This document shows positions 15,401 through 40,200 of a stretch of 64,000 bases of DNA, piece after piece. The notes beneath the pieces are model-generated. The model was not told the DNA's origin. It saw only the letters and a list, made by a program, of their open reading frames with translations, and made no database searches. The translations under genes and the position numbers were made by a program. Numbering within the stretch: position 1 is the stretch's first letter; each line of letters opens with the position of its first letter. The stretch is from contig CM067318.1 in assembly GCA_034231615.1 (NCBI GenBank), forward strand, positions 40,090,769-40,154,768. Direction: 5' to 3'. This DNA comes from Meghimatium bilineatum (lineage: Eukaryota > Mollusca > Gastropoda > Stylommatophora > Philomycidae).

Positions 15401-18400
15401 TCTTAATAACAAAGTCGACCTCTCCACTTTTGAGGCTGATGTTAGCCTCAGGTATTGGACGAATATGCTACAGGATCTGAAGCAACAGACCAGCGTGCGG
15501 ACTATCATGAAAGAAATAAGTGCAGCCAGAACCATCCTGACAGTCAAAGTCATGGCTTACAAAAATGGAGAAGGTAGACTTAGAAAGGGGGAGATTATTT
15601 GTGGATCCAGTATCGCGGGAGTAAGTAAATGTGTAATAATATGTCAAAGTTATGCTTCATTTTTTGTTGTTTGAAATTAATGAAGAGTGTGAGGGTTTAT
15701 CACTCTTGTTTCCTGAGTCAGGCAGTCAAATTTTGGCACCTGCTCTAAGAACATGTATGTTTGTCCTGGCACAGTTCTCTGATTGAGAGTTGCCATTGGT
15801 TTTCTTTTAGATCCATGAGGAATATTTGTTGCAATGTAGATGTAGAATGCCACAAGCTGGGAAATATTCTCCAGAGATGAGATTTTGTCCTAATCCTCGT
15901 GCAGCTGAGGCATGGTGCAGATAAAGAGGTTGATTCTATCGCATAGTACCACCCTTTTGGCAACTGGGGCCTGGACTTATAGCTCTTGGGTGCAAAGAAT
16001 AGCACTGCTGTCTTCTTTCTAGGCATGTCATAGGAGGTGACTAAGGAATGTTGAGTGATATGTTGACAACTTGTCACCTGTGAAAAAGTCATCGTCACTA
16101 CATGTCTTATCTTGATTTCTTACTTTTGTTGTCTTCTGTCACATTAAAAAACACACTTAAATTAAAAACTCACCTAAATTAAAAAACTCACTTTAATTAA
16201 AAAACTCACCAACATTAAAAAATGCACAAACTCACTTTAATTTACAAAAATCACCTAAGTTAAAAAACTCACCTAGATTAACAAAACTCACCTAAATTAA
16301 AAAACTCACCTAAATTTTAAAAACTTACCTAAATTAAAAAACTCACCTAAATTTTAATAACTTACCTAAATTAAAATAACTTACGTAAAATTAAGAAACT
16401 CACCTAAATTAAAATCTCACCTAAATTAAAAAACTTATGTAAATTAAAAGCTCACCTAAATTAAAAAACTTATCTAAATTAAAAAACTCACCTAAATTTT
16501 AAAAACTTACCTAAATTAAAAAACTTTCGTAAAATTAAGAAACTCACCTAAATTAAAATCTAACCTAAATTAAAATCTAACCTAAATTTAAAAAACTCAA
16601 CTAAATTAACAAAACTCACCTAAATTAAAAACTCACCTAAATTTAAAAAACTCACTTAAATTAAAAAAACCTAAATTTAAAAACTTACGTAAATTAAGAA
16701 AGTCACCTAAATTAAAAAATTCACCTAAATTAAAAAACTTACGTAAATTAAGAAACTCACCTAAATTAAAAAACTCACCTAAATAAAAAAAACTCACCTA
16801 AATTTACAAATACTTACATATATTAAAGAACTCACCTAAATTAAAAAACTTATGTAAATTAAAAAGCTCACCTAAATTAAAAAACTCACCTAAATTAACA
16901 AAACTTACCTAAATTAAAAAACTCACCTAAATTTTAAAAACTTACCTAAATTAAAAAACTTTCGTAAAATTAAGAAACTCACCTAAATTAAAATCTAACC
17001 TAAATTAAAAAAACTCAACTAAATTAACAAAACTCACCTAAATTAAAAACTCACCTAAATTTAAAAAACTCACTTAAATTAAAAAAACCTAAATTTAAAA
17101 ACTTACGTAAATTAAGAAAGTCACCTAAATTAAAAAATTCACCTAAATTAAAAAACTTATATAAATTAAGAAACTCACCTAAATTTTAAAAACTCACCTA
17201 AATTAAAAAAACTCACCTAAATTTAAAAATACTTACATAAATTAAAGAACTCACCTAAATTAAAAAACTTATGTAAATTAAAAAGCTCACCTAAATTAAA
17301 AAACTCACCTAAATTAACAAAACTTACCTAAATTAAAAAACTCACCTAAATTTTAAAAACTTACCTAAATTAAAAAACTTTCGTAAAATTAAGAAACTCA
17401 CCTAAATTAAAATCTAACCTAAATTAAAAAAACTCAACTAAATTAACAAAACTCACCTAAATTAAAAACTCACCTAAATTTTAAAAACTCACTTAAATTA
17501 AAAAAACCTAAATTAAAAAACTTACATAAATTAAGAAACTCACCTAAATTTTAAAAACTCACCTAAATTTAAAAAAACTCACCTAAATTTACAAATACTT
17601 ACATAAATTAAAGAACTCACCTAAATTAAAAAACTCACCTAAGTTTTTAAAAATTATATAAATTAAAAAACTCACATAAATTAAAGGATGTATGTAAATT
17701 AAGAAACTCACCTAAATTTTAAAACTTACATAAATTAAAAAACTTACATAAATTAAAAAACTCATGCATTATGTCATGTGATGACAGGAAGAACATGCAG
17801 CCTTTATCACACAGCTACAAAATTCCTTCCTGCAACTTCCTAATGGGATACGTGCAGTCTTCTGTCAAATGGTGCCCATGGATGACAGAGAAGTGCAGGC
17901 CAGCAGACATTGCACATGTGTCATTTTTGTGAAAAACTCCTAGGTGGCAGGAAATACTAGGTGTGTCATCACTGGCAATGGGTCAACAAAGCCAATGGAA
18001 GACTTGATGAACTGGTTGGCTGTATGCTATGCACATTGCAGAACCTGATATTTCATGGACCGCTGGATCAGCAACCAGAAACTGAGGATCATGGAATACT
18101 GCTGCACATTGCAGAAGCTGAGGATCATGGAATACTGCTGCACTAGAATGCTTTCCTTTGAAGACTAAATATGTATCAATAAACCTTCCTAATACAACCA
18201 CGTCTTTGAGACTGTGAGCCTTATACAAGCTCTGGTGTCACCTCCGTTACTTACTGAGTAGGACTTGTGTTTTTGTCAGAAAGTCTTGAATATATGTTTT
18301 AGTGAGAGGAGAATGTATCTGCAGCCCTGAATAGACCTATAAAAATAGAACATACCCCCTCCCTTTTTCAGTTGCTGTGAATGTATTATGATAGATCCAG

Positions 18401-21400
18401 ATTGTTACCACATCTACTGATATAAATTTAAATTAATTGCAACTCTTCCACACTTCAGGAAGTTCTGCGCTAGTCATAACTTAACTATCCCCATCATCTT
18501 TTTTATAACCGACACAACAAGTCCTGTGGGGAAGTAATATAAATAATACACTGATTTCAACACTAAAATCATCATCTGATTAATTTCCCTAATTGTTTTC
18601 AAATATTTTTACCATATAAATTTAATTAGTCATCAAGTACAAGCTCAATAGATCTTCCATACATTAGTGGGGGACTTGCCATGACAACATGCATTGAAAT
18701 AATGAGATTTGATGATTGTCTTAGCTACCATCCTTAATTATAAAAATGTACACATAGGAAGATCTATAGAACAGAATTATCCCAGATTTACAGCACAATT
18801 TCTCATGATGAAAATAGATAACAACCACATTATAGTGACAATCTGCCATGACTTGACTATACATTCCCATAGTGCATCTGTACTTTGTGACATTGCCTGT
18901 TTGTGTACATTTGAGCCTTCACAATATTCCTATAAGGTAGGATCTGTGAGGGTTTGTTAGACTGGTATATTGGTCAGACAGGGTGCATGATTGTTTATAT
19001 ACTGACCAAATATCAGGATATGGATTCGAAGAGATTACTGATATATATATATATCCCACACTAGAGTTTTTATAAAGCATCTGTAACAGAATAATAAATA
19101 ATGACCAGTTTCCTGTCCTCCCAGATCTTAGGACAGTGCACCCATAGACTGGACATGCATTCTGCTGCCCGGAGAATCTACCTAGAGGACGGATCAGTGG
19201 TCTTGGATGTAGATGATTTGATTAAGTTTGCAGTGGAAAACTGCAAGACTGAGATGATTAATATGATTCTCTCCAAGAAAAAAGAACATGGTGGTAAGTT
19301 GAAGGTCATATTTAGAAAAAATATATTGAGAAGACATAAGATCGATGAAAGAAGGCCTGATTAGATTATTAGTTATAATCTGATGTCGTTGCATTCTGGG
19401 TAAACTGTGCTCTGTTTCGCTCAGAAAATGTTGAAGATTGTGCATGCCAATGGTTTCCTTGCTTCCTTGTTGACAAAATTTCTTATTCTATCCTATCTAA
19501 CCATTCTTGGTATCACCATCTTTTATATATATATACCATAAATGACACAACAAAACTTCAGGAAGTTTGTTGTCAATGTCCTTCATTCTCTGATAAGGTT
19601 ACTTCTTCTCAATCTCCTTCATTCTCTGATTAGTATACTTCTCAATCTCCTTCATTCTCTGATTAGGATACTTCTCAATCTCCTTCATTCTCTGATTAGT
19701 ATACTTCTCAATCTCCTTCATTCTCTGATTAGGATACTTCTCAATCTCCTTCATTCTCTGATTAGTATACTTCTCAATCTCCTTCATTCTCTGATTAGTA
19801 TACTTCTCAATCTCCTTCATTCTCTGATTAGTATACTTCTCAATCTCCTTCATTCTCTGATTAGTATACTTCTCAATCTCCTTCATTCTCTGATTAGTAT
19901 ACTTCTCAATCTCCTTCATTCTCTGATTAGGATACTTCTCAATCTCCTTCATTCTCTGATTAGGATACTTCTCAATCTCCTTCATTCTCTGATTAGGATA
20001 CTTCTTCTCAATCTCCTTCATTCTCTGATTAGGATACTTCTCAATCTCCTTCATTCTCTGATTAGGATACTTCTCAATCTCCTTCATTCTCTGATTAGGA
20101 TACTTCTCAATCTCCTTCATTCTCTGATTAGGATACTTCTCAATGTCCTTCATTCTCTGATTAGGATACTTCTTCTCAATGTCCTCCATTCTCTGATTAG
20201 GATACTTCTTCTCAATGTCCTCCATTCTCTGATTATGATACTTCTTCTCAATGTCCTCCATTCTCTGATTAGGATACTTCTTCTCAATGTCCTCCATTCT
20301 CTGATTAGGATACTTCTTCTCAATGTCCTCCATTCTCTGATTAGGATACTTCTTCTCAATGTCCTCCATTCTCTGATTAGGATACTTCTTCTCAATGTCC
20401 TTCATCTCTTCTGAGAATGTACATTCTAACCTGTTGAAGTCCTCTGTGCATGAAATAAAACTCTGAAGAAATGCACTGTGACACATGATACTGATGACAT
20501 TGCACATAGAAAGTAAGAGCTAAACATACATAATTCCTAGGTATGAAATATAGCTCTGAAAGAGCTAATCATTCTTTTCAATGACCAAATTTCCTCACAA
20601 TCCATCTGCACTCTGCTGGAAGCAGAAATCAATGTGCACACTTTGAAGATCAACATATTTTTTTAACTCGTAGGTAGTATGCGTGAACTTAAACTCACAT
20701 TTTTACACACTCTTTCTAAGAAACAAAATTAAAAGTGTATTTACATTTACTCTTTGTACAATATTTTATGTATTTTAAAATCTACATTACTATACATCGT
20801 AATGTGCAAAATTGAATGACATTTTCAGAATCTTAGAATATCTGCATGTTGTTTTGTTTGAAGAGTAGAAATATATAGTATATCAGATGAATGTTTCTGA
20901 GAAAATATAATAGTAAAAATTTGTTTTAATTTTGAAAAACAATATTTATAAAGTCAGACATAGGGCGTATGACTCTAGCATTTTAAGTTGGCTGTTTTGT
21001 ATAGTATATCCATTTCTGTGACTATTTGGAAAGTCTCAAATGTTTCTATGCACAAATAAAAGTTCTGTGATAATTTGAATGTTTGTTGACATGTGGTTTT
21101 GTTTACGAGATAAGTTTTAACTTTTTATCCTGATCAATTTCGACAAATCATCTAACGACAGTATTTGCTCCTGAACAAATATCACAAAATGGCCAAAAAA
21201 AGTTATGAGAGAAGACCTTTAGAAATATTTTGATTGAACAACATTTTACAATCTGTTTTCGTGGAGAGTTTTAGCAACGTTTACAAACAAAGTATAGAAT
21301 TGTCTATTCAGAAGTCGAGCATATTTTTTTGTCTGACCACAATCTTTTCAAAAGATGGACTGGGTAAAAAAGGCTTAAAGCAAGGTATGTAACTCTTTTA

Positions 21401-24400
21401 CGCTCTGTGTGAGATCTCACAAGTGAAGCTGAACTACTATCACCATGATGGGACAAACTAGGTCACCTTCACTTGTAAGATTTCATATAGAGCATGAAAG
21501 AAGTTATATACTTCTCATTTTATACATATATTGGCACATGGTCAGTGCATGCAACTGGTAAATAATAACAATTTATGTATTATGGTTTATAATATTTTTT
21601 TTTTAAATCGAGGAAGTTACTATAATCTCTTGTATGATATAGCATGTAAGACATAATGAGAATTGATGACTGTCTTATCTACTTTTCTTGATTATAACAA
21701 ATATATCTTCATTGTTCTGACAGAAATAATAGGAGAGGATGAAACAGTCAGAATACAGTCTCTGCAGAATGAAGTCAGTGAAGATGTTAATGAAGATTTT
21801 AGAAGATCCTACAGCATCATAAAAAATGAAGCTGAAAATTATGTAGAAAGAACAGAGAAGGCCAAAAAGATTATGAAAGATGAAATGAGAATGGAGAATA
21901 ATTTGTCAGCAGAACAAGAAAAAGAGAATTCAGTACTAAAAGGTAATTTGATTTTAGTATTGGTACATGCAACGTGTGACTTTATCTTGTCCAGAATTGT
22001 TGTATTGGTACATGCAACTTGTGATTTTATCTTGTGCAGAATTGTTGTATTGGTACATGCAACTTGTGATTTTATCTTGTGCAGAATTGTTGTATTGGTA
22101 CATGCAACTTGTGATTTTATCTTGTGCAGAATTGTTGTATTGGTACATGCAACTTGTGATTTTTATCTTGTGCAGAATTGTTGTATTGGTACATGCAACT
22201 TGTGATTTTTATCTTGTGCAGAATTGTTGTATTGGTACATGCAACTTGTGATTTTTATCTTGTGCAGAATTGTTGTATTGGTACATGCAACTTGTGATTT
22301 TATCTTGTGCAGAATTGTTGTATTGGTACATGCAACTTGTGATTTTATCTTGTGCAGAATTGTTGTATTGGTACATGCAACTTGTGATTTTATCTTGTGC
22401 AGAATTGTTGTATTGGTACATGCAACTTGTGATTGTATCTTGTGCAGAATTGTTGTATTGGTACATGCAACTTGTGATTTTTATCTTGTGCAGAATTGTT
22501 GTATTGGTACATGCAACTTGTGATTTTTATCTTGTGCAGAATTGTTGTATTGGTACATGCAACTTGTGATTTTTATCTTGTGCAGAATTGTTGTATTGGT
22601 ACATGCAACTTGTGATTTTATCTTGTGCAGAATTGTTGTATTGGTACATGCAACTTGTGACTTTATCTTGTCCAGAATTGTTGTATTGGTACATGCAACT
22701 TGTGATTTTATCTTGTGCAGAATTGTTGTATTGGTACATGCAACTTGTGATTTTATCTTGTGCAGAATTGTTGTATTGGTACATGCAACGTGTGACTTTA
22801 TCTTGTCCAGAATTGTTGTATTGGTACATGCAACTTGTGATTTTATCTTGTCCAGAATTGTTGTATTGGTACATGCAACTTGTGATTTTATCTTGTGCAG
22901 AATTGTTGTATTGGTACATGCAACTTGTGATTTTATCTTGTGCAGAATTGTTGTATTGGTACATGCAACGTGTGACTTTATCTTGTCCAGAATTGTTGTA
23001 TTGGTACATGTAACTTGTGATTTTATCTTGTCCAGAATTGTTGTATTGGTACATGCAACTTGTGATTTTATCTTGTCCAGAATTGTAGTATTGGTACATG
23101 CAACTTGTGATTTTATCTTGTCCAGAATTGTTGTATTGGTACATGCAACGTGTGATTTTATCTTGTCCAGAATTGTAGTATTGGTACATGCAACTTGTGA
23201 TTTTATCTTGTGCATAATTGTTGTATTATGTAAGTTATCACTTCTTGAATGATCACTTTAAAAACAGCCTATGCTTCTTTTTCAACAAGGCTCAAGAGTA
23301 TTAAGATGCAATTGGCAACTGTGCCAGACTTTGTCAACTTCCAGAATCATCATTCTATATTTTAGTTCAAGGTAGTCCATACATTCTGTATTTTGGCCAC
23401 ACATCATTGTAGGGGTCTTGATTATAGGTTAATACTAGCCTAGTGCTCATTATGGGCATGTTCAGTGAAGCAGAGTATATTCTGTAAAAATTGACAGGAA
23501 TACACATAATTTATTGTAAAATGGTTTGGACACCCTGTGAGAATGAACCATAACCAACTACCGACAAGAACATATAACATAAGAAGATCCGGATACAAGG
23601 CTAGAGGAAGACCTAGAACAAGATGGATAGATAATATCAAGACAATTCTGAACAAATATGAATTCAGCCAAGGTGACTCATCTGGTCTTGGATAGACAAC
23701 TAAAGCTCCCAGTCACCATCCCTACACTTAACAGCAAGTGTGGATATTCTCACCATCATCCACCTGAGAATAGACAATAGATCCATCAAAATGGGCTTAT
23801 GCCTTTTAGCCCCGAAAAGAATGTTGTACAGGTTGTTAAATACTGGCTAATTTAAAGTAAAAAAATGTATCTTATTTGTAACATTACAAATTATAACCTA
23901 ATCAGATCAGGGTCAAATTATAACTTTTCAATGACAAGAGTAAATGAGGAATAGAGAAAATATAATCTTTACTAAAGAGTCTGTCTATTCTCTGATTATC
24001 AGTGACCTATCAGTTAATTTAGACTAGCATATTTGAGATGATATTTGATAGGGAACAAAGAAGTATCTATCTTACTTCTCTTTCATTGACATCCTTTGGA
24101 ACTTCAGAGCACTAAAACAATAACTTTCTTGTCCCAATCCTGCACAAACAATGCTAAATTTGATCTGCCTACATAAAATGTCTTGTCTTCTCCTGTTCTA
24201 TACAATTAATTACATTTACTTTTTTCATATTTCTTTCCATTACATTTAAGATAGTAACTTACTGTAATAAACAACTCATTGAATGTTTATCAACTTTACT
24301 AGAAGCAGTGGATGAACACAAACAAGAACATGAGAAACTTCTTGAGAACATAGAATTACCTCCCCTTGAAATGATCCTACACGCACCAATAGAAGTGTGG

Positions 24401-27400
24401 ATCTCCAGTGGTAAAGCGTTTGTACCTCCTGAAGGTTAGTTGGCATATAAATCATGTTCGTCATGAGTGTTCGTCCATCACATGATGGTGATGTCCATTT
24501 GTTACATCCACTTGTGAAAAGTCAGTCAGAACTATATCCTTGCCTATGGCATAGATGGCAGATAAAATGTAAATACAGAAGCAATGATAAATACTGCACT
24601 AGTTAATTTAGACATTGTTCACACAGTTAGATAATTTAGACATTGTTCACACAGTTAGATAATTTAGATATTGTTCACACAGTTAGTTAATTTAGACATA
24701 TTTCACACAGTTAGACAATTTAGACATTGTTCACACAGTTAGATAATTTAGACATTGTTCACACAGTTAGATCATTTAGACATTGTTCACACAGTTAGAT
24801 AATTTAGACATTGTTCACACAGTTAGATAATTTAGACATTGTTCACACAGTTAGATAATTTAGACATTGTTCACACAGTTAGATAATTTAGACATTGTTC
24901 ACACAGTTAGATAATTTAGACATTGTTCACACAGTTAGATAATTTAGACATTGTTCACACAGTTAGATAATTTAGACATTGTTCACACAGTTAGATAATT
25001 TAGACATTGTTCACACAGTTAGATAATTTAGACATTGTTCACACAGTTAGTTAATTTAGACATTGTTCACACAGTTAGATCATTTAGACATTGTTCACAC
25101 AGTTAGATCATTTAGACATTGTTCACACAGTTAGATCATTTAGACATTGTTCACACAGTTAGTTAATTTAGACATTGTTCACACAGTTAGATCATTTAGA
25201 CATTGTTCACACAGTTAGATCATTTAGACATTGTTCACACAGTTAGTTAATTTAGACATTGTTCACACAGTTAGATCATTTAGACATTGTTCACACAGTT
25301 AGTTAATTTAGACATATTTCACACAGTTAGATAATTTAGACATTGTTCACACAGTTAGATAATTTAGACATTATTCACATAGTTAGATAATTTAGACATT
25401 GTTCACACAGTTAGATAAATGCGAAATTACAAGACAATTAATTCAAACATTTTTATTTATGGAATATTTTGGGAGTTCATAGAAAAGAAGAAATTTATAG
25501 GAGGTCACTATTTACTTATGCAACATGTCTTCAGTAGATAATATGCCAGGATAGCCAGATTTTTCTCTTGTTGCACCTATCAGATCAACCATCATGCAAC
25601 AGTAAGATGTCATCATGCAACAGTAAGATGTCATCATGCAACAGTAAGATGTCATCATGCAACAGTAAGATGTCATCAGTAGATGACATGCCAATATAGT
25701 CAGACTCTTTTCTTGTGTAAAACCCACATAATTGTATCTGCATTTCTGTTTCCTTTAATGGGGCAGCATTAAGATAATCCAGCATTGCACACTACGAATA
25801 AGTCTTTTTTCACATTCAGCAGAAGCTGTAACTTGCATTTATCTGTTTAGATTATTAGTAATTATGAGGAATAGAGATCTTTTATTCTGTGGGAAGATTT
25901 CTCCAGAGCTTGATTTCATACCCAGAAGATGCCAACTCTCAGCACTGTGCAATACTTTAGGAATCCTTTACTCAGAGAGGGAAAACATGATTGTATAGAG
26001 AAGGGATGAGGGGCTTCCATGAGAGGAATGTCTCACTATACAGTGGAATCCATCTATAAAACAATCGCTATATAACAGATTTTCCTATTTAACAACACTT
26101 TATAAAATCCCCAATTTTTGTGTATTCTTTATTGTTTGTACTGTATGTAATGAATATCTGTTATTACATACATATTTTGTTGGCCCAGACCAAGGTGTTA
26201 TAATGGGATTTGGACTGTGTAAGCATGATTAAGAGTTCACTGTTGCATGGTAGTTGCACAGTGGTTTCATGGTGGTTGCACAGTTGTTTCATGGTGGTTG
26301 CATGGTGGTTGATCTGACATACCCCTAGTAAGACCTATTTGTATTTATAGCTTGTGAACGTGAACATTTGGACAAAAACACAAACTGTTTTCTAAGTGAC
26401 TTTCATGAACATTCATCCAGTTGTTGAATCTAAAGAAGAAAACCTTCGGAAAAAAAGACAATTGAGATCACAAGTATGCCTCGCTCTAGACATTGAGAAA
26501 CATGTTTTGAGGCAGATAAAAGGAAGGCGCCTAGAACAGATGAGTCCTGGAGTGTATGAATCCACACTAAACAGTCAACAGCCAGTGGTGATTGAGAAAC
26601 ACTGGCTGGAGCCAACATTGGAGGAACAAGACAAACACCTGTCTATAGATAAATTACAGGTAACTTATCTCAGATCTGTATGTCACTTAACTATAGATAA
26701 ATTACAGGTAATTTATCTCAGATCTGTATGTGACTTAACTATAGAAAAATTACAGGTAACTTATCTCAGATCTGTATGTGACTTAACTATAGAAAAATTA
26801 CAGGTAACTTATCCCAGATCTGTATGTGACTTAACTTTAGAAAATTACAGGTAACTTATCCCAGATCTGTATGACTTATACAAGGCCCCTATAGATAAAT
26901 TAAAGGTAACTTATCCCAGATCTGTATGTGACTTAACTATAGATAAATTACAGGTAACATATCTCAGATCTGTATGTGACTTAACTTTAGAAAATTACAG
27001 GTAACTTATCCCAGATCTGTATGACTTATACAAGGCCCCTATAGATAAATTAAAGGTAACTTATCCCAGATCTGTATGTGACTTAACTATAGATAAATTA
27101 CAGGTAACTTATCTCAGATCTGTATGTGACTTAACTTTAGAAAATTACAGGTAACTTATCCCAGATCTGTATGACTTATACAAGGCCCCTATAGATAAAT
27201 TAAAGGTAACTTATCCCAGATCTGTATGTGACTTAACTATAGATAAATTACAGGTAACTTATCTCAGATCTGTATGTGACTTAACTTTAGAAAATTACAG
27301 GTAACTTATCCCAGATCTGTATGACTTATACAAGGCCCCTATAGATAAATTAAAGGTAACTTATCCCAGATCTGTATGTGACTTAACTATAGATAAATTA

Positions 27401-30400
27401 CAGGTAACTTTTCTCAGATCTGTATGTGACTTAACTTTAGAAAATTACAGGTAACTTTTCTCAGATCTGTATGTGACTTATAGTATAAATGACATCATCA
27501 TGTTACTTGTCAGCAGATATAAATGATCATTAATCTCAACATATGTCATCTCTGATTATCTGTTTAATTGTTGATATTTATTCCATGCCAAGAAGTTTCA
27601 GTGTAAAAATATATCAAACAAATTGCTATGCCTAATGGCATAGATAATCATGTTTCTCTACAACTCTCCACATGTTTCTCCACAACTCTCCATGTGTTTC
27701 TCCACAACTCTCCATATGTTTCTCCACAACTCTCCATGTGTTTCTCCACAACTCTCCATGTGTTTCTCCACAACTCTCCATGTGTTTCTCCACAACTCTC
27801 CATGTGTTTCTCCACAACTCTCCATGTGTTTCTCCACAACTCTCCATGTGTTTCTCCACAATTCTCCATGTGTTTCTCCACAACTCTCCATATGTTTCTC
27901 CACAACTCTCCATGTGTTTCTCCACAACTCTCCATGTGTTTCTCCACAACTCTCCATATGTTTCTCCACAACTCTCCATGTGTTTCTCCACAACTCTCCA
28001 TGTGTTTCTCCACAACTCTCCATGTGTTTCTCCACAACTCTCCATGTGTTTCTCCACAACTCTCCATATGTTTCTCCACAACTCTCCATGTGTTTCTCCA
28101 CAACTCTCCATGTGTTTCTCCACAACTCTCCATATGTTTCTCCACAACTCTCCATATGTTTCTCCACAACTCTCCATGTGTTTCTCCACAACTCTCCATA
28201 TGTTTCTCCACAACTCTCCATATGTTTCTCCACAACTCTCCATATGTTTCTCCACAACTCTCCATATGTTTCTCCACAACTCTCCATTACATTTCTCCAT
28301 AACTATCCACATTTCTCCACAACTCTCTAAATTTCTCCAGAACTCTCCACATGTTTCTCCACATCTCTCCACATTTCTCCACATGCTTCGCTACAACTCT
28401 CCACATGTTTCTCTACAACTCTCCACAACTCTCCACATGTTTCTCCACAACTCTCCACATGTTTCTCCACATTTCTCCACATGTTTCTCCACATTTCTCC
28501 ACATGTTTCTCCACAAATCTCCACATGTTTCTCCACAACTCTCTTATCTCTTGTGATGCTAAGAAGTTCAGTCTGTCATATTCTACTATGCCATTATAAT
28601 AAAATATCTAAAAACTTCTCTCTTTCTCTTCCTCTATAACTTCTCTATTTCTCTTCCTCTATAACTCCCCCCCCCCCTCATCTTTCCAGTAGTTAGAAAA
28701 ATGTTTAAGTTCTGCTCTTCTCATCACATGCCCTATAAATCGTGATTGCTATTATAAATCTAATGTTTTCTATCATTTGTCTCTTTATAGCATCCCTGAA
28801 CAGGTTCAGATATGCATTCAAAAACAATTTTTTTAAAACATTCCTCTTAAACAGATTTGCTTCATTCAATTTCTTTAATTTATATTTTCAAGAAATAAAT
28901 TAATCTGTTATCTTTAGTAGTTTAGAAAACATATTCATCTGTTATAAATAAATAATCATGTTTGAATAGATATGCAAAATAATTTGTAATGTTTGTGTTA
29001 CTTCCTTAATTTCATGTGCAGTCCCATCTTGGTGAAATCCGAGCCAACCAGCAAGAAGAAAAAGTAACATTTACAGGAATCAATCTAGATGGGAAGTTGT
29101 ACCACCAGCCAAATATGGTAAGTTTTCTTCTTATTAAGTCTCTTAACACTTGTAATGTGTGATGTTGACACAAGGGATTACAGAGTCTCAACTTAACACT
29201 TGTATTGTGTGATGTTGACACAAGGGATTACAGAGTCTCAACTTAACACTTGTAATGTGTGATGTTGACACAAGGGATTACAGACCTTCAACTTAACACT
29301 TGTAATGTGTGATGTTGACACAAGGGATTACAGACCTTCAACTTAACACTTGTAATGTGTGTTGTGGACACAAGGGATTACAGACCTTCAACTTAACACT
29401 TGTAATGTGTGATATTGACACAAGGGATTACAGACCTTCAACTTAACACTTGTAATGTGTGATGTTGACACAAGGGATTACAGAGTCTCAACTTAACACT
29501 TGTAATGTGTGATATTGACACAAGGGATTACAGACCTTCAACTTAACACTTGTAATGTGTGATATTGACACAAGGGATTACAGACCTTCAACTTAACACT
29601 TGTAATGTGTGATGTTGAAACAAGGGATTACAGACCTTCAACTTAACACTTGTAATGTGTGATATTGACACAAGGGATTACAGAGTCTCAACTTAACACT
29701 TGTAATGTGTGATGTTGACACAAGGGATTACAGACCTTCAACTTAACACTTGTAATGTGTGATATTGACACAAGGGATTACAGACCTTCAACTTAACACT
29801 TGTAATGTGTGATATTGACACAAGGGATTACAGAGTCTCAACTTAACACTTGTAATGTGTGATGTTGACACAAGCGATTACAGACCTTCAACTTAACACT
29901 TGTAATGTGTGATGTTGACACAAGGGATTACAGACCTTCAACTTAACACTTGTAATGTGTGATGTTGACACAAGGGATTACAGACCTTCAACTGAACACT
30001 TGTAATGTGTGATGTTGACACAAGGGATTACAGACCTTCAACTTAACACTTGTAATGTGTGATGTTGACACAAGGGATTACAGAGTCTCAACTTAACACT
30101 TGTAATGTGTGATGTTGACACAAGGGATTACAGACCTTCAACTTAACACTTGTAATGTGTGATATTGACACAAGGGATTACAGACCTTCAACTTAACACT
30201 TGTAATGTGTGATATTGACACAAGGGATTACAGAGTCTCAACTTAACACTTGTATTGTGTGATATTGACACAAGGGATTACAGAGTCTCAACTTAACACT
30301 TGTAATGTGTGATGTTGACACAAGGGATTACAGACCTTCAACTTAACACTTGTAATGTGTGATATTGACACAAGGGATTACAGACCTTCAACTTAACACT

Positions 30401-33400
30401 TGTAATGTGTGATATTGACACAAGGGATTACAGACCTTCAACTTAACACTTGTAATGTGTGATATTGACACAAGGGATTACAGAGTCTCAACTTAACACT
30501 TGTAATGTGTGATATTGACACAAGGGATTACAGACCTTCAACTTAACACTTGTAATGTTTGATATTGACACAAGGGATTACAGAGTCTCAACTTAACACT
30601 TGTAATGTGTGATGTTGACACAAGGGATTACAGACCTTCAACTTAACACTTGTAATGTGTGATATTGACACAAGGGATTACAGAGCCTCAACTTAACACT
30701 TGTAATGTGTGATATTGACACAAGGGATTACAGAGTCTCAACTTAACACTTGTAATGTGTGATATTGACACAAGGGATTACAGACCTTCAACTTAACACT
30801 TGTAATGTGTGATATTGACACAAGGGATTACAGAGTCTCAAATTAACACTTGTAATGTGTGATGTTGACACAAGGGATTACAGAGTCTCAACTTAACACT
30901 TGTAATGTGTGATGTTGACACAAGGGATTACAGACCTTCAACTTAACACTTGTAATGTGTGATATTGACACAAGGGATTACAGACCTTCAACTTAACACT
31001 TGTATTGTGTGATATTGACACAAGGGATTACAGAGTCTCAACTTAACACTTGTAATGTGTGATATTGACACAAGGGATTACAGAGTCTCAACTTAACACT
31101 TGTATTGTGTGATATTGACACAAGGGATTACAGAGTCTCAACTTAACACTTGTAATGTGTGATGTTGACACAAGGGATTACAGACCTTCAACTTAACACT
31201 TGTAATGTGTGATATTGACACAAGGGATTACAGACCTTCAACTTAACACTTGTAATGTGTGATATTGACACAAGGGATTACAGACCTTCAACTTAACACT
31301 TGTAATGTGTGATATTGACACAAGGGATTACAGAGTCTCAACTTAACACTTGTAATGTGTGATATTGACACAAGGGATTACAGACCTTCAACTTAACACT
31401 TGTAATGTGTGATATTGACACAAGGGATTACAGAGTCTCAACTTAACACTTGTAATGTGTGATGTTGACACAAGGGATTACAGACCTTCAACTTAACACT
31501 TGTAATGTGTGATATTGACACAAGGGATTACAGACCTTCAACTTAACACTTGTAATGTGTGATATTGACACAAGGGATTACAGAGTCTCAACTTAACACT
31601 TGTAATGTGTGATGTTGACACAAGGGATTACAGACCTTCAACTTAACACTTGTAATGTGTGATATTGACACAAGGGATTACAGAGTCTCAACTTAACACT
31701 TGTAATGTGTGATGTTGACACAAGGGATTACAGAGTCTCAACTTAACACTTGTAATGTGTGATGTTGACACAAGAGATTACAGACCTTCAACTTAACACT
31801 TGTAATGTGTGATATTGACACAAGGGATTACAGAGTCTCAACTTAACACTTGTAATGTGTGATATTGACACAAGAGATTACAGACCTTCAACTTAACACT
31901 TGTAATGTGTGATATTGACACAAGGGATTACAGAGCCTCAACTTAACACTTGTAATGTGTGATATTGACACAAGGGATTACAGAGACTCAACTTAACATT
32001 TGTAATGTGTGATATTGACACAAGGGATTACAGACCTTCAACTTAACACTTGTAATGTGTGATATTGACACAAGGGATTACAGAGTCTCAACTTAACACG
32101 TGTAATGTGTGATGTTGACAGAAGGGATTACAGACCTTCAACTTAACACTTGTAATGTGTGATGTTGACACAAGGGATTACAGACCTTCAACTTAACACT
32201 TGTAATGTGTGATGTTGACACAAGGGATTACAGACCTTCAACTTAACACTTGTAATGTGTGATATTGACACAAGGGATTACATGGTCTCAACTTAACACT
32301 TGTAATGTGTGATATTGACACAAGGGATTACAGAGTCTCAACTTAACACTTGTAATGTGTGATGTTGACACAAGGGATTACAGACCTTCAACTTAACACT
32401 TGTAATGTGTGATGTTGACACAAGGGATTACAGACCTTCAACTTAACACTTGTAATGTGTGATGTTGACACAAGGGATTACAGACCTTCAACTTAACACT
32501 TGTAATGTGTGATATTGACACAAGGGATTACAGAGTCTCAACTTAACACTTGTAATGTGTGATGTTGACACAAGGGATTACAGACCTTCAACTTAACACT
32601 TGTAATGTGTGATGTTGACACAAGGGATTACAGACCTTCAACTTAACACTTGTAATGTGTGATTTTGACACAAGGGATTACAGACCTTCAACTTAACACT
32701 TGTAATGTGTGATGTTGACACAAGGGATTACAGACCTTCAACTTAACACTTGTAATGTGTGATATTGACACAAGGGATTACAGACCTTCAACTTAACACT
32801 TGTAATGTGTGATATTGACACAAGGGATTACAGAGTCTCAACTTAACACTTGTAATGTGTGATATTGACACAAGGGATTACAGACCTTCAACTGAACACT
32901 TGTAATGTGTGATATTGACACAAGGGATTACAGACCTTCAACTTAACACTTGTAATGTGTGATATTGACACAAGGGATTACAGAGTCTCAACTTAACACT
33001 TGTAATGTGTGATGTTGACACAAGGGATTACATAGTCTCAACTTAACACTTGTAATGTGTGATGTTGACACAAGGGATTACAGACCTTCAACTTAACACT
33101 TGTAATGTGTGATATTGACACAAGGGATTACAGACCTTCAACTTAACACTTGTAATGTGTGATATTGACACAAGGGATTACAGAGTCTCAACTTAACACT
33201 TGTAATGTGTGATGTTGACACAAGGGATTACAGACCTTCAACTTAACACTTGTAATGTGTGATATTGACACAAGGGATTACAGACCTTCAACTTAACACT
33301 TGTAATGTGTGATATTGACACAAGGGATTACAGAGTCTCAACTTAACACTTGTAATGTGTGATATTGACACAAGGGATTACAGACCTTCAACTTAACACT

Positions 33401-36400
33401 TGTAATGTGTGATATTGACACAAGGGATTACAGAGCCTCAACTTTGTACTTTCACTGGTCATGGATAGTGTGTGCCATTGTTTACTCAGTCTTAGGAAAT
33501 AGATCACTTTTGTTTCTTTTGCTAGACAGTGTTTTACTTGTCTTACTATAGGGCATACTGATGTTTACTTGTCTTACTATAGGGCAGGGGTCGACAACCT
33601 ATGGCATGTGTGCCACACTTGGCACGCCAAGCAATTTTAAAGGGCACGCAGACCCTTCACGTTTCCTGTATAAAGTTGATTATACATCGATTAGCGGAGT
33701 TTTAGCAACAGATTGACTTCAGATCTTCAGAATTATGGACATCAAAATTTGTCGAACTACGGTAGTCTCTGGAAAATGAAAATCTAGAAAAGTCTGCAGC
33801 TGTTGGACATCTCTCCCAAATGATTACATCTGTTTGAAGAAAAATGCTTTTGCTCTTCTTTCAGCTTTTGGATCAACCTATTCCTGTGAGCAAATTTTCT
33901 CTCACATGAAAGCAGTGCTAAATCCACAGCGTAGTCGCCTAACGCCTGAACATTCAGAAAATTGTGTCAAACTCAAAGTGACAAAGTATGTTGTCGATAA
34001 TGAGCAACTGGCCAAGACCATGCAAGGCTCTCATTAATAATAAAAAAGTTGTTTTTTTAAATCTTTCAAGAAACTATTTCTTTTAATGTTGTTTACAGCT
34101 GTACATATTATTGATTATCTCTATATATTAATTAATTAAAAATATAAAAATAAAATATATGGTAAAATAAGAATATTGACCTCGTTTTGTATAAAATGAT
34201 ATGTGATGTTGGCACTCTGAATAATTTGAAACCTCAAGTTGGCACACAGTTAGCAAAAGGTTGCCGACCCTTGGTATAGGGCATACTGATGTTTACTTTT
34301 CTTACTATAGGGCGTACTGATGTTTACTTGTCTTACTATAGGGCGTACTGATGTTTACATGTCTTACTATAGGGCGTACTGATGTTTACTTGTCTTACTA
34401 TAGGGCATACTGATGTTTACTTGTCTTACTATAGAGCGTACTGATGTTTACTTGTCTTACTATAGGGCGTACTGATGTTTACTTGTCTTACTATAAGGCG
34501 TACTGATGTACAATCACAGTGCACTATGTTATTACATACATTAAACTAATGCACACTGTTTGCTCATGTAAAATTGGATGCCAATGTTATTTTTCAAGTC
34601 AAGTGGTTTTGTTTCTATGAAATAATAAGTCAGTACTTATAGAAAAAAATAAACAAATTGTTGAATGACATTTTTATGTGGAACAATACACAAAATCAAC
34701 GCTTCGACCACAAAAGGACTAAAAGGCCTGTATCCTGAACACAACATAACAAACAGTGAGTAAAAAGCAGTAAGAATGTCCACGCACACATTGCTAGTGA
34801 TGAATGTTGGGACTTGGACATTGTCGTTTCTCACTCGTCGTGTGTATATTGTAGTCTTGATATATGTCTTTTAGTTAAAACATCAATATATGTGTTTTAT
34901 TATGTGTGTTACTATTGGATGGCAGTTTTGCTGCAGTTTATACGCCTATTATTCTTGGTTTGACAGTCAAGCTTCCATATTGTACTAATGAAATGATTGA
35001 ATGTATTAGCCTCCACGTTGTACTAGAAATATGATTGAATGTATTAGCCTCCACATTGTACTGTGATATGATTGAATGTATTAACCTCCACATTGTACTA
35101 GTGATATTATTGAATGTATTAGCCTCCACATTGTACTGTGATATGATTGAATGTATTAACCTCCACATTGTACTAGTAATATTATTGAATGTATTAACCT
35201 CCACATTGTACTAGTGGTATGATTGAATGTATTAACCTCCACATTGTACTAGTGGTATGATTGAATGTATTAACCTCCACATTGTACTAGTGGTATGATT
35301 GAATGTATTAGCCTCCACATTGTACTAGTGATATGATTGAATGTATTAGCCTCCACATTGTACTGGTGATATGATTGGGTGTATTAGTAACACTAAATAT
35401 TCTACAATAGTTGAACAGAAATTTCTCATACAGGATTATTCATTCATATATACACATACAAGGATTAAGTACTCAACTTCCACCAGTATTATAGTATATA
35501 CACATACTTATTATAGTATATACACATACTTATAGTATAGAATAGAAGTTTATCAGAAAAGATTGCAGTGTAGCAACCAGGAACTGGACTTAAACAGGAT
35601 AGGGTCACTGTCTTCTTTCTAGGCATGTTGTAGGCGGCGACTAAGAAAGTTGAGGGATGAACTGACAACTTGTCACATGTGAAAATTACAATTGTCGCTG
35701 CAAGTCTTGATTTCTTACTTTTTTCATCTGCGAAGTGGTCACCATGGATGACGACAAGATTCAAGCCAATGGATATTGTACCTTTGTCCTTTTGTGACAC
35801 TCCTAGCTGGCGGGGAATAATAGATGTGCCACCACTGCTAATGGATTAATATATCTGACAAGAAGAATGGTGAAATAGTTGGCCCAGAATTACGTTATGT
35901 GCTCTGGACAGGACATAATGATCATAGGGTACTACTGGCACACTGGAATGCTTCCCTTCAGGGATTAAACATGCATTTATATACCCTACGTACTCACACA
36001 ACCATGTCTTTGAGACAATAAAATTTGTATGAGTTTTGAACCAGTGCGAACGGGAATTGAACCAGTCCGTTCAATGGCACCAAATCGCCTAGTTAGTCTC
36101 ATGAATTTTTACTCAACTGAGTAGCACCTGTGTTTTTGTTAGAAAGGCAATGGACTGTCAAGAGTTACTGCTCACAGCTAAAGGGATTATTTCATCATCA
36201 TGATAACAAGATTGAAGTTTGAACTAAGTAGAAATTGAACAATGGATTGTAGGTACATTAAGACCATGGTACTAACATTGGTATAGTCTTTGTTAATATT
36301 AACTGTTGATTGTATATTAAAGAAACGAGTCCTAGTGTTCCCAAACGGAGCATCTACAGAGAGAAGTATTTATGTTTGGGGTAACAGCATACAGGAAATC

Positions 36401-37150
36401 ATGAACAGCGCTGCTTTGAAACTGGGCCTATGGAAACAACCTAGCATCTTGTACAGTATGGACGGACAAAAGGTAATTCATCAGCAGTTTCAATTTTCTA
36501 GCTTTTCTTTTAATATTTACCTTTTCGAGATAAATAGGCACTCCTGACCATCATCATGTGCGATAGAAGAATGTATCCTGGTAGATATGAGGCCTCAGAA
36601 CAAAATTGTAACGTAAGTGCTAATTTTTGTGTAAAATTCTTATTTTAGCCAGTCAAATACCATCGAAACAACTTGGTCCGACTGACAAAATATTTATGTA
36701 GTAACAGAAATTCACTATACATAGCCGGGGGACCAAGTGTCACACTTTTCACTTTTAGTGTATTCTCACAACTAGACTCAACTATGAGAGACCAAATTGC
36801 CATCGGTGAATAGCTTATCAATTCTTCTTACATTAGTGAGAATATATCAAGTGTAATGAAAACGTATAAACAGTAGAATGAGAATGTATGAACATATGTT
36901 TAAATTTTTTTTACCATTTTTGAGGGCAAAGTGTCACAGGCTAAAAGGTAATACAAACCATTATAAAATTGAAGGAGACCACCACTGTGACAGGTCTGAC
37001 ACACCGGCAATGTGTAAATGTGTGCTAAGAATAGATTAAATAAATAGATATACCTAGTTTCATAACTTTAATCTGAAAAAAAAGTTTGGATAAAAACTAG
37101 TTTGTAAGTTCCGTTTTAAAGCTAACAATGTCTTTTTAAAGTTGGATGAT

Positions 37151-37201
<51 letters not shown>

Positions 37202-40200
37202 TCTATCCTAGCTTTATATCGACAACTTGCTCATAACATCAGCATTTTTTTTCATACATTCTGAATGCAACACTTTGCCCCATTTATCTTGCAACACTTT
37301 ACCCCAGATGGCATTGTTAGCAACTATCATAAATTCCAATGAAAAAACAAAATAAAAAATTTTGAAATGAACTAAGCATGTGACATTCAATAAGAGTGTA
37401 GTCTTTGTAAGAGCTATTTGTGTTTTAAAATAATTTCATCATAAATTTGGTGATGGCTCACAATTTTGGGGTGGAAAGATTAATAAATAAATCAAATGTG
37501 AAATGTAGAACATAAGGTTAAGATGGGATAAAGTGTGGAGAAACTGATCAAAAATGGATAGAGCTTACATTTGCTGGTGTGAAATATTAGTGACTGTATG
37601 GTTCAGAGTCCCTAACTTGTGGATAAGATGAAGAGATAGGCTAATTTGATCATCTGAGGAACTGAACCAGGCCAGTGACAGTATCCCACTCTATTCCTGA
37701 TTTTACCAGATTGCCCGTGTCCCATGCAAGTTAACCAGTAGGCCTATGATATCTTAATAATTGTTTCTAATATCAATCAAGTGCCCAGGCTGAGGGGCAT
37801 TGAGGATCATGTTTCTCCACAACTCTCTGCCTGTTGTCTTGTTAATAAGTTCAGTTGGTGACATTCTATCATGTCATGGCAACAGCTCCTCCAGCGATTT
37901 CTCTCTTTGTCTTCCTCCATATCTTCTTCCCGTGATCTTTCCGGCGGTTACTAAATGTTCAAGTGTTGCTCTTCTTATCACATACCCTAAAAATCTGGAC
38001 TGTCTGTTTCAATTTTTCAATATACTTTCTTCTTCTTCCTCTGTGTTCATTCTAAAACTCCTGCAAATTAGCAGGATGTAGTCTGGATAACAAAATGCCA
38101 ATGGATAACAAAATACCACAGCACACAATTTCTTATATACATTTATAGCACTTCACTGCACAGAATATTTCTCATTTAAAAAAAAAAGGCAATTTGAAAT
38201 TTATTATGCTGCATAAGTGTACATAGGTTTTACTCCATATTACTGCTGCCCAGGCAATTCACGCCAAATCAGTGGAGAAGGATACCCTACCATTACAGAG
38301 GTTTGTAGATCAGTTGTAATTTTCACACCAGCTTTCTTCCTGAACCCATTTGTAACGTTTGCTAATATGTACTTACTGCGCAAAACTGAAATCCAACAGG
38401 TATTTGTAATGTTTGCACCGGCTTACTTCCAGACTCCCCTGTTAAGACACAAAAGGCTATCATCATCATCATCTTCATATACATACAATAATTTTATTTC
38501 AACAGATTGAGGTGTTTGATGATATAGAGCGTGACCAGCTTCTCTGTGTCTCCACTGGTAAAAAGTTCATGCCTCCCAGTATTCAAAGAGCAAATACTGA
38601 AATCAAAGCCAACTGGGGCCGTGCGCGCAAGATGTATGGCAAACAGGCAACAGATTTAACGGTGAATGTAGAAAAGAACCCGAAGATTGATGTAAGTATA
38701 AGGAAGTGTAGGCTTGGTATATACTTTTTTTTTAAAACCACCAGACATTATCAACAAAGACAGGTAGTTCAAATGTTCACAAATTCAAATTTCAATTTCC
38801 ACCAGTTAGATTATAGTTTTACCACAGTTCTATTCTATTATTGATATGTCAATACTGACACATTTTCTTCTTCTTCATTATTCTCAGATTCCTACTATTG
38901 AACATTATTTACTCGAGTATACAGAATATGAGTTATAGTTCAAAACTTTGCTGTAATATCTACACCTTTCAGTCAAACACTTCTAATTTCAGCTTGACTG
39001 TGATATTATACCTTTCAGTCAAACACTTCTAATTTCAGCTTGACTGTGATATTACACCTTTCAGTCAAACACTTCTAATTTCAGCTTGACTGTGATATTA
39101 CACCTTTCAGTCAAACACTTCTAATTTCAGCTTGACTGTGATATTACACCTTTCAGTCAAACACTTCTAATTTCAGCTTGACTGTAATATCTACACCTTT
39201 CAGTCAAACACTTCTAATTTCAGCTTGACTGTGATATTACACCTTTCTGTTGAACACATCTAATTTCAGCTTGGTATTTTAGATCACCTTTGCTTCTAAG
39301 TTAGCCAACCCAACACTCTGACTCTTCTTAGTTGCCTCTCTTGATATGCATGGGCAAGTCAGCTAAGATTCGTTTCCCTTTTAGGCCTTGGCAATCTATT
39401 AGTGATTTGCGCAGATATTGATCAGTATATGGCTACATATACATTTTATGAATGTATGTCTCATTAAGAAATTCATAAATAATGACCTGGATACCTGCAA
39501 ATGAAGTTAAATATATTTTTGGCCATTATTAATAATGCTTAATTTTAAACTTAAATACAACCAAGTCCAGTTAGAACAATTTGGCCCGGATCAGTTAAAT
39601 ATGTATGTAATAACAGAAATTTGTTGTATGGTTGGTTAGTTGCTGATCCAGTGTTACATGGGATCATGCCCTTTGACCCTGTCATTATATTGCTGGGAAG
39701 TCTGTGGATTTTCGGCCCACCCTGGCCCAGAGAATAACTATCACACTGCCAGGAAGGTAGGTTTCTACATATGCTCTGCTCCAAGCCACTGCAGCCAAGA
39801 TAGGGTTCACTGTGCTCATTCCCCACCACCAATTGACTACTGGTAATGCCGAACTCTCTATTGCTCCAGGCATGTAACCAAATATTCAAGTCAAAAAAGA
39901 TTTTCCCATCCTGAACCACTGTGATGGGTCTCAGTCATAGGAAAAAAACAGTGCTGTCAGTTTCCTCCTCCCTTGTGTTGTGCAGTACATCTCTGGCTCC
40001 CTCCAAACCACAGAAAGTGCTTACATATATAAAAATATACAAATCATAAAACACATTGCAACAACAAAATAAAATCATGAGAAGCATAATTGTATAGATA
40101 ACGTGCCATGAAGCTTCTATAAGAAGATAGCCTCAATATAACAGCATGCCATCTACTAAGGTTTTCTGTTGCATGGGTGGTTTGTCTAGTGGATCATTGG

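What the first reader, a model, noticed from the sequence alone, without database searches (positions are those of the whole stretch)
26640..27478. A host 5' splice site has been amplified into 17 tandem donors, the first four in frame
The last codons of DCDC1-like exon 10 and the GTAA donor form the core of a 47/48-bp array. The first units are 48 bp and open, so splicing at donor 1, 2, 3 or 4 would add 0, 16, 32 or 48 residues and still join phase-0 exon 11. This is a possible length-variable protein segment generated by a minisatellite that carries its own splice site. Later units (47 bp, then ~150-bp higher-order) break the frame.
Basis: seen in the sequence. Interest (0 to 1): 0.82.

Follow-up and report, generated by a model that had tools for sequence, protein, structure and literature searches.

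The report
Minisatellite copying an exon's splice donor
In an animal gene related to DCDC1, a short stretch spanning the end of one exon and the start of its intron is repeated 17 times, so the cell sees 17 near-identical cutting signals; this kind of repeat is already known from lancelets, where it is reported to leave normal splicing intact, although here the first four signals could in principle lengthen the protein.

Summary
A minisatellite at 26643-27482 starts 17 nt inside an exon (26421-26659) and carries 17 AG|GTAA donors in units of 48, 47 and 55 bp; after unit 4 these form a 150-bp higher-order repeat. The exon model is sound: nine exons join into 542 open codons with matching phases and match Pfam DCX2_DCDC1 (E 3.2e-16). 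Donors 1-4 add 0, 16, 32 or 48 residues and keep the frame through the last modelled exon; donors 5-17 all meet a stop.

The candidate extra codons look intronic. And this class is published: 'mirages', tandem repeats across exon-intron boundaries in lancelet genes, reported not to disturb normal splicing. Tandem dual-use AG|GT arrays are also known from human polyubiquitin UBC.

My reading is a mirage-type array: donor 1 makes the main mRNA, and donors 2-4 give at most a minor, frame-tolerated fraction. The gene shows a wider pattern: arrays start within 25 nt of a donor, or overlap it, in 4 of 11 modelled introns against 0.48 expected (post hoc), and a second array duplicates an exon edge. 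No RNA data and no second allele were available, so donor use is unproven.

The parts
26421..26659 (+).
   Evidence: acceptor ...catccag|TT, donor CAG|gtaact, phase agrees with both neighbours; open frame
26643..27482 (+). Boundary-spanning minisatellite, 17 units (48, 47 and 55 bp), 17 AG|GTAA donors
26660..26665 (+). Donor 1 (CAG|GTAACT), inferred main donor
   Evidence: U1 pairing -8.0 kcal/mol, same as most later donors, so the choice of donor 1 is inference
26660..26803 (+). Three open 48-nt units: splicing at donors 2, 3 or 4 (26708, 26756, 26804) would add 16, 32 or 48 residues in frame
   Evidence: codon content looks intronic
26834..27433 (+). Four copies of a 150-bp higher-order repeat (55+48+47 bp), successive copies 99.3-100% identical; contain in-frame stops
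26647..26670 (+). Near-palindrome centred on the AG of the first donor (AGATAAATTAC-AG-GTAACTTATCT, 10 of 11 pairs), a possible seed of slippage
   Evidence: of 134 other AGGT sites in the window 1 scores 9 and none 10 or 11
29022..29117 (+).
13470..38691 (+). Gene model of nine exons: 13470-13596, 15361-15620, 19125-19293, 21724-21942, 24255-24434, 26421-26659, 29022-29117, 36323-36472, 38506-38691; 542 codons, no stop
   Evidence: Pfam DCX2_DCDC1 E 3.2e-16, two stretches
2711..6630 (+). Two upstream exons (2711-2902, 6419-6630) of a ricin-type domain, phase-matched to each other
   Evidence: Ricin_B_lectin E 2.1e-6, 28.4 bits, just under the cut-off of 29
13156..13511 (+). Second boundary array in the same gene: 78-bp spaced copies of 36 nt of exon ([SG]Y[QH]VEIDGQ[EK][FL]K) plus intron; the last copy runs into the real exon at 13470; a sixth copy lies at 11759, beyond reverse-transcriptase-like fragments; 4 of the 6 copies have cattacag directly upstream

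Best explanation
This is a mirage-type minisatellite: tandem duplication of a 48-bp segment, 17 nt of exon plus 31 nt of intron, spanning the 5' splice site of a DCDC1-like gene. SHOWN: the anatomy, the 17 donors, the exon model, the frame arithmetic, the higher-order repeat. INFERRED: the array began by slippage or unequal exchange at the boundary, perhaps helped by the near-palindrome around the donor, and has been homogenised recently. It was tolerated because every copy brings its own donor and what lies beyond donor 1 is intron. Donor 1 is used for most mRNA. Use of donors 2-4 would add 16, 32 or 48 residues between two DCX-like regions without breaking the frame, so it is a harmless minor outcome; use of donors 5-17 would introduce a stop and probably send the mRNA to decay.
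For: The array overlaps the exon by exactly the 17 nt repeated in unit 2. Exon phases agree at 8 of 8 junctions, with DCX2_DCDC1 at 3.2e-16. Extension codons look intronic: with this array left out of the intron background, -0.34 per codon for 48 codons and -0.44 for the first unit, exons +0.03 to +0.27, open intron 16-mers mean -0.22 (sd 0.20), and 0 of 526 exon 16-codon windows as low as the first unit; with every array left out, -0.23 and -0.28 against exons -0.01 to +0.13. Same gene: arrays start within 25 nt of, or overlap, the donor in 4 of 11 introns (expected 0.48, P 7.5e-4), and a second boundary array exists. Published lancelet mirages have the same anatomy and are reported not to disturb regular splicing.
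Against: No RNA was available. By U1 pairing 13 of 17 donors score -8.0 to -8.1 kcal/mol and 4 of 17 -6.5, so there is no sequence reason why donor 1 should win; from general knowledge (no call), when two strong donors compete the one nearer the acceptor can win, which here would favour stop-bearing products. The lancelet globin paper itself says the repeated signals could act as cryptic sites giving alternative transcripts. The species is unknown, so a link to lancelets is by anatomy only. The donor-side clustering was tested after it was seen, on one gene, with distance limits chosen afterwards; across three array-score cut-offs and two limits P ranged from 0.0004 to 0.0048.
Confidence: 0.72

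Rival explanations
1. Stochastic length-variable protein segment, the first reader's idea: donors 1-4 are all used at appreciable rates, giving linkers of 0, 16, 32 or 48 extra residues, much as the tandem dual-use AG|GT sites of human UBC give a ladder of monomer numbers.
For: 4 of 4 first donors keep the frame; every unit has AG|GT (17 of 17); dual-use AG|GT arrays and a variable number of monomers are described for UBC; the junction (residue 398/399 of the joined model, from the exon lengths) lies between DCX-like stretches, where a length change could be tolerated.
Against: Codon content looks intronic. The three sites that differ among the three 16-residue units all change the amino acid (too few to test). 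As acceptors the AG sites are poor, 9-11 pyrimidines of 20, against 10-17 for the 12 modelled exons.
Confidence: 0.13
2. The donor array acts on RNA processing rather than on the protein: 17 U1-binding sites at the start of the intron work as decoys, or as a U1 platform that slows or secures splicing or suppresses premature polyadenylation, with strength set by copy number.
For: 17 near-equal U1 sites within about 0.8 kb.
Against: Nothing here shows selection for it. Other arrays in the same gene also sit at donors without a repeated AG|GTAA, so position at a donor does not need donor function. The mechanism is from general knowledge, not from a call.
Confidence: 0.08
3. The exact copy number, and some of the 150-bp copies, are an assembly artefact; the true allele has a different number of units.
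For: Successive 150-bp copies are 99.3%, 100% and 99.3% identical, a hard case for assembly; 36% of the window is tandem repeat.
Against: Units 1, 2 and 7 each carry a base found in no other unit, units 3-4 and units 16-17 share differences pairwise, so the edges at least are distinct sequence. An artefact of copy number would not remove the boundary overlap.
Confidence: 0.05

Closest known systems
Mirages: minisatellite-like tandem duplications of exon-intron boundaries in lancelet genes (Adh3, globins BflGb6 and BflGb9, troponin C, PGBD5); PMC3087553 (passages read), PMC3902484 (passages read)
   Same: Tandem units straddle a splice boundary and carry AG/GT signals; edge units are less homogenised than inner ones; suggested route to new introns. 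Regular splicing is reported kept for Adh3, troponin C and the globins; for PGBD5 that is the authors' inference.
   Different: Here 17 donor copies, against 6 and 3 units in two haplotypes of BflGb6 (copy numbers for Adh3 were not in the passages seen); a 150-bp higher-order repeat; the first four copies keep the reading frame; the gene is DCDC1-like; the species is unknown and not shown to be a lancelet.
Tandem dual-specific splice sites (DSS) of human polyubiquitin UBC; PMC10809524 (abstract and passages read)
   Same: AG|GT at every repeat boundary; frame-keeping 48-nt units could in principle be kept or spliced out in any number.
   Different: UBC units are functional coding monomers; here the units look intronic, lose the frame after unit 4, and are weak as acceptors.
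Internal tandem repeats at exon-intron boundaries of human duplicated genes; PMC2812944 (passages read)
   Same: Minisatellite expansion at an exon edge changes, or could change, splicing.
   Different: Those are mostly primate-lineage expansions in duplicated genes, with transcript evidence; here there is none.
[quoted passage not shown] PMC4974935 (abstract and outline read)
   Same: A duplicated boundary supplies ready splice signals.
   Different: No new intron is shown here; the second array (13156-13511) is the closer case for it.

Membership tests
Mirage (boundary-spanning minisatellite) | Tandem repeat unit spans an exon-intron boundary | tested here: met
   The 48-bp units hold 17 nt of exon and 31 nt of intron; array 26643-27482, donor 26660
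Mirage (boundary-spanning minisatellite) | Units carry splice signals | tested here: met
   17 of 17 units have AG|GTAA
Mirage (boundary-spanning minisatellite) | Normal mRNA splicing is kept | not testable with these tools
   No RNA data; donor 1 joins the next exon in frame
Mirage (boundary-spanning minisatellite) | Copy number varies between alleles or cells | not testable with these tools
   No genome held for the window; near-identical inner copies suggest recent turnover
Mirage (boundary-spanning minisatellite) | Found in a lancelet | not testable with these tools
   Species not identified; window G+C 35.6%
Tandem dual-specific splice-site array (UBC type) | AGGT at each repeat boundary | tested here: met
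   17 of 17
Tandem dual-specific splice-site array (UBC type) | Unit is an open multiple of 3 that encodes protein | tested here: not met
   Of 16 spans between neighbouring sites, 7 are 48 nt and open, 5 are 47 nt, 4 are 55 nt with stops; the open units score as intron
Tandem dual-specific splice-site array (UBC type) | Each site also works as acceptor | tested here: inconclusive
   9-11 of 20 pyrimidines upstream for 17 sites, against 10-17 for 12 modelled acceptors
DCDC1-like doublecortin gene | DCX2_DCDC1 domain | tested here: met
   E 3.2e-16, 59.8 bits, cut-off 27.8, two stretches, on the joined nine-exon protein

The most novel reading that the evidence does not exclude
Repeat copy number at a splice boundary sets the length distribution of a protein linker: U1 chooses stochastically among four equal in-frame donors, while further copies are held in check by a built-in stop and mRNA decay, so an unstable minisatellite makes a heritable, tunable, self-limiting protein length polymorphism.
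Probability: 0.1. Interest if true: 0.72.

Novelty: new member of a known kind. Interest (0 to 1): 0.42.

Why it matters
It is a clean natural experiment on how the spliceosome chooses among 17 near-identical donors, with a frame read-out for the first four and a stop for the rest. It also suggests that boundary minisatellites of the lancelet kind can recur within one gene: two boundary-spanning arrays here, and several more that start within tens of bases of a donor. If that holds genome-wide it would make one proposed route of intron and exon-length change directly testable.

Tried and rejected
Chance or a wrong exon model: rejected. Phases agree at 8 of 8 junctions, 542 codons are open and DCX2_DCDC1 is at 3.2e-16. 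In single-fragment Pfam scans (20 fragments) 3 of 20 passed a curated cut-off, all transposon domains (RNase_H twice, Dimer_Tnp_hAT once); two exons hit DCX2_DCDC1 below the cut-off. The two exons at the array junction have no credible family of their own (best 0.093, Hom_end_hint, and none). The joined protein also had two weak hits below their cut-offs (KHA 0.0018, Ubiquitin_DCDC1 0.014). The PDB search gave nothing usable: 4 distinct sequences, E 0.015 to 0.23.

RNA fold of the array: no unusual structure. 211 nt at z -1.06, and 5 of 17 single units at z -0.65 to 0.47. No tRNA, no Rfam family at its gathering score. The bacterial promoter and terminator scan is not meaningful for an animal gene.

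Acceptor-side clustering of arrays: not found, 1 of 11 introns against 0.46 expected at 25 nt and 1.25 at 70 nt. The test used 28 arrays merged by hand from the Tandem Repeats Finder table up to 41002, and limits (25, 70 nt) set after seeing the distances. Two of the 11 'introns' (459-2710, 6631-13469) may hide unmodelled exons; the exon 306-458 is not phase-linked to the rest. The palindrome control used an arm length taken from the observed palindrome.

Codon test: the first version had the array itself in its intron background; one search repeated it without this array and without any array, and the sign of the result stands.

None of the listed titles or abstract starts named this gene or a 17-donor array, but no search used a term for DCDC1. 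The original lancelet Adh mirage paper was not among the two papers listed and was not read.
Full report
WHAT IS THERE. Tandem Repeats Finder places an array at 26643-27482, 17.0 copies at period 48 and 5.6 at period 150. Seventeen AG|GTAA donors were listed one by one. Split at the donors, the units are 48, 48, 48, 47, then 55, 48, 47 four times over, and a last unit of 48. Successive 150-bp copies are 99.3, 100 and 99.3% identical. The array enters the exon by 17 nt: CTATAGATAAATTACAG ends the exon and recurs exactly in unit 2.

THE GENE. Nine exons with AG and GT splice sites from 13470 to 38691 join into 542 codons without a stop; start and end phases agree at all eight junctions. The joined protein matches Pfam DCX2_DCDC1 with E 3.2e-16 in two stretches; the single exons near 19.1 and 36.3 kb gave 2.6e-4 and 1.6e-5, both below the curated cut-off. 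Two exons further upstream, phase-matched to each other, give Ricin_B_lectin at 2.1e-6, just under its cut-off. DCDC1-like is therefore right. From the exon lengths the junction in question is residue 398/399 of the joined model. The best DCX stretch is at 102-174, and the other DCX-matching exon, 36323-36472, begins after residue 430, so the junction lies between them.

FRAME. Splicing donors 1-4 to 29022 stays open through the last modelled exon, with 0, 16, 32 or 48 added residues; 13 of 13 later donors meet a stop. Twelve of 17 donors are a multiple of 3 away from donor 1, because 48+47+55 = 150, but a stop at donor 5 (AGG TAA) closes the way. This is less surprising than it looks: a random 48-mer of this window is open in a given frame 39% of the time, and the copies are not independent.

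DOES IT ENCODE PROTEIN? With this array left out of the intron background, the three open units score -0.34 per codon, exon against intron (first unit -0.44). The nine exons, each left out in turn, score +0.03 to +0.27; open 16-codon intron windows average -0.22 with sd 0.20, n 15093; none of 526 exon 16-codon windows (these were part of the exon training set) is as low as the first unit. With all arrays left out of the background the figures are -0.23 and -0.28 against exons -0.01 to +0.13 (first version). G+C is 28% in the units and 32-44% in the exons. This argues against a long-standing coding role. It does not exclude occasional use.

WHICH DONOR? By pairing to the 5' end of U1, 13 of 17 score -8.0 to -8.1 kcal/mol and 4 of 17 score -6.5, mid-range among the other modelled donors. 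Sequence alone does not pick a winner. As acceptors, the same AG sites have 9-11 pyrimidines in 20 nt, the 12 modelled acceptors 10-17, so use as dual sites is possible but weak.

HOW IT MAY HAVE ARISEN. The first donor sits in a near-palindrome, AGATAAATTAC-AG-GTAACTTATCT, 10 of 11 pairs; of 134 other AGGT sites in the window one scores 9 and none more, and of the other 11 modelled donors none scores above 5. A hairpin there could seed slippage; this is inference. Single-strand RNA folds of the array are not unusual (5 of 17 units).

THE WIDER PATTERN. Tandem repeats fill 36% of the window (52 arrays merged by hand). Among 11 modelled introns, an array starts within 25 nt of the donor, or overlaps it, in 4 (expected 0.48, P 7.5e-4), and within 70 nt in 5 (expected 1.24, P 0.0026); on the acceptor side 1 at either limit (expected 0.46, P 0.38, and 1.25, P 0.75). 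With higher array-score cut-offs the donor side gave P 0.0004 to 0.0048. The limits were chosen after seeing the data. A second array, 13156-13511 with a further copy at 11759, repeats 36 nt of exon plus intron at 78-bp spacing; six copies read GYQVEIDGQKLK or close variants in frame. Five of the six are followed by GTAAGC, GTATGC or GTATGA; the last, which runs into the exon, by GTGTGC. Four of the six have cattacag directly upstream. Reverse-transcriptase-like fragments lie between the two parts (RVT_1 E 0.0017, below its cut-off). Which copy of that exon edge is the original was not settled.

COMPARISON. Lancelet 'mirages' are the same kind of object: minisatellite-like duplications of exon-intron boundaries in Adh, globin, troponin C and PGBD5 genes. 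Regular splicing is reported kept for Adh, globin and troponin C, with the note that repeated signals could act as cryptic sites; for PGBD5 it is inferred (passages read). Human UBC shows that tandem AG|GT sites can give a ladder of isoforms, human duplicated genes that repeats at exon edges can change splicing, and potato that a boundary duplication can make an intron (abstract). The array here meets the anatomical tests of a mirage; splicing outcome, copy-number change and species could not be tested. It fails the coding-unit test of a UBC-type array.

VERDICT.

Noticed in passing
window 11759-13511: Second boundary array in the same gene: six copies of 36 nt of exon with an intron end and a donor-like GT, reading as in-frame 12-residue micro-exon-like pieces; one copy is separated from the rest by reverse-transcriptase-like fragments. 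A candidate for intron gain or tandem micro-exons.
   Followed up: partly
window 2921, 13658, 21957, 29142: Other minisatellites begin 18, 61, 14 and 24 nt after modelled donors (37-, 55-, 45- and 50-bp units); the last has 86 copies over 4.3 kb.
   Followed up: partly
window 1-64000: 36% of the window is tandem repeat, 52 merged arrays.
   Followed up: partly
window 40883-41002, 53499-53615, 54674-55040: Three arrays whose units share a stretch close to TGTCCYGCTACAA, as if part of one dispersed element had been tandemly amplified at several places.
   Followed up: no
window 33780-34034, 55497-56354, 59625-60494: hAT dimerisation fragment (E 4.3e-7) and two RNase H domains, probably of retrotransposons (E 3e-12 and 5.4e-12).
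   Followed up: no
window 27650-28543: A second large array in the same intron, 41 copies of a pyrimidine-rich 22-bp unit, between the donor array and the acceptor at 29022.
   Followed up: no
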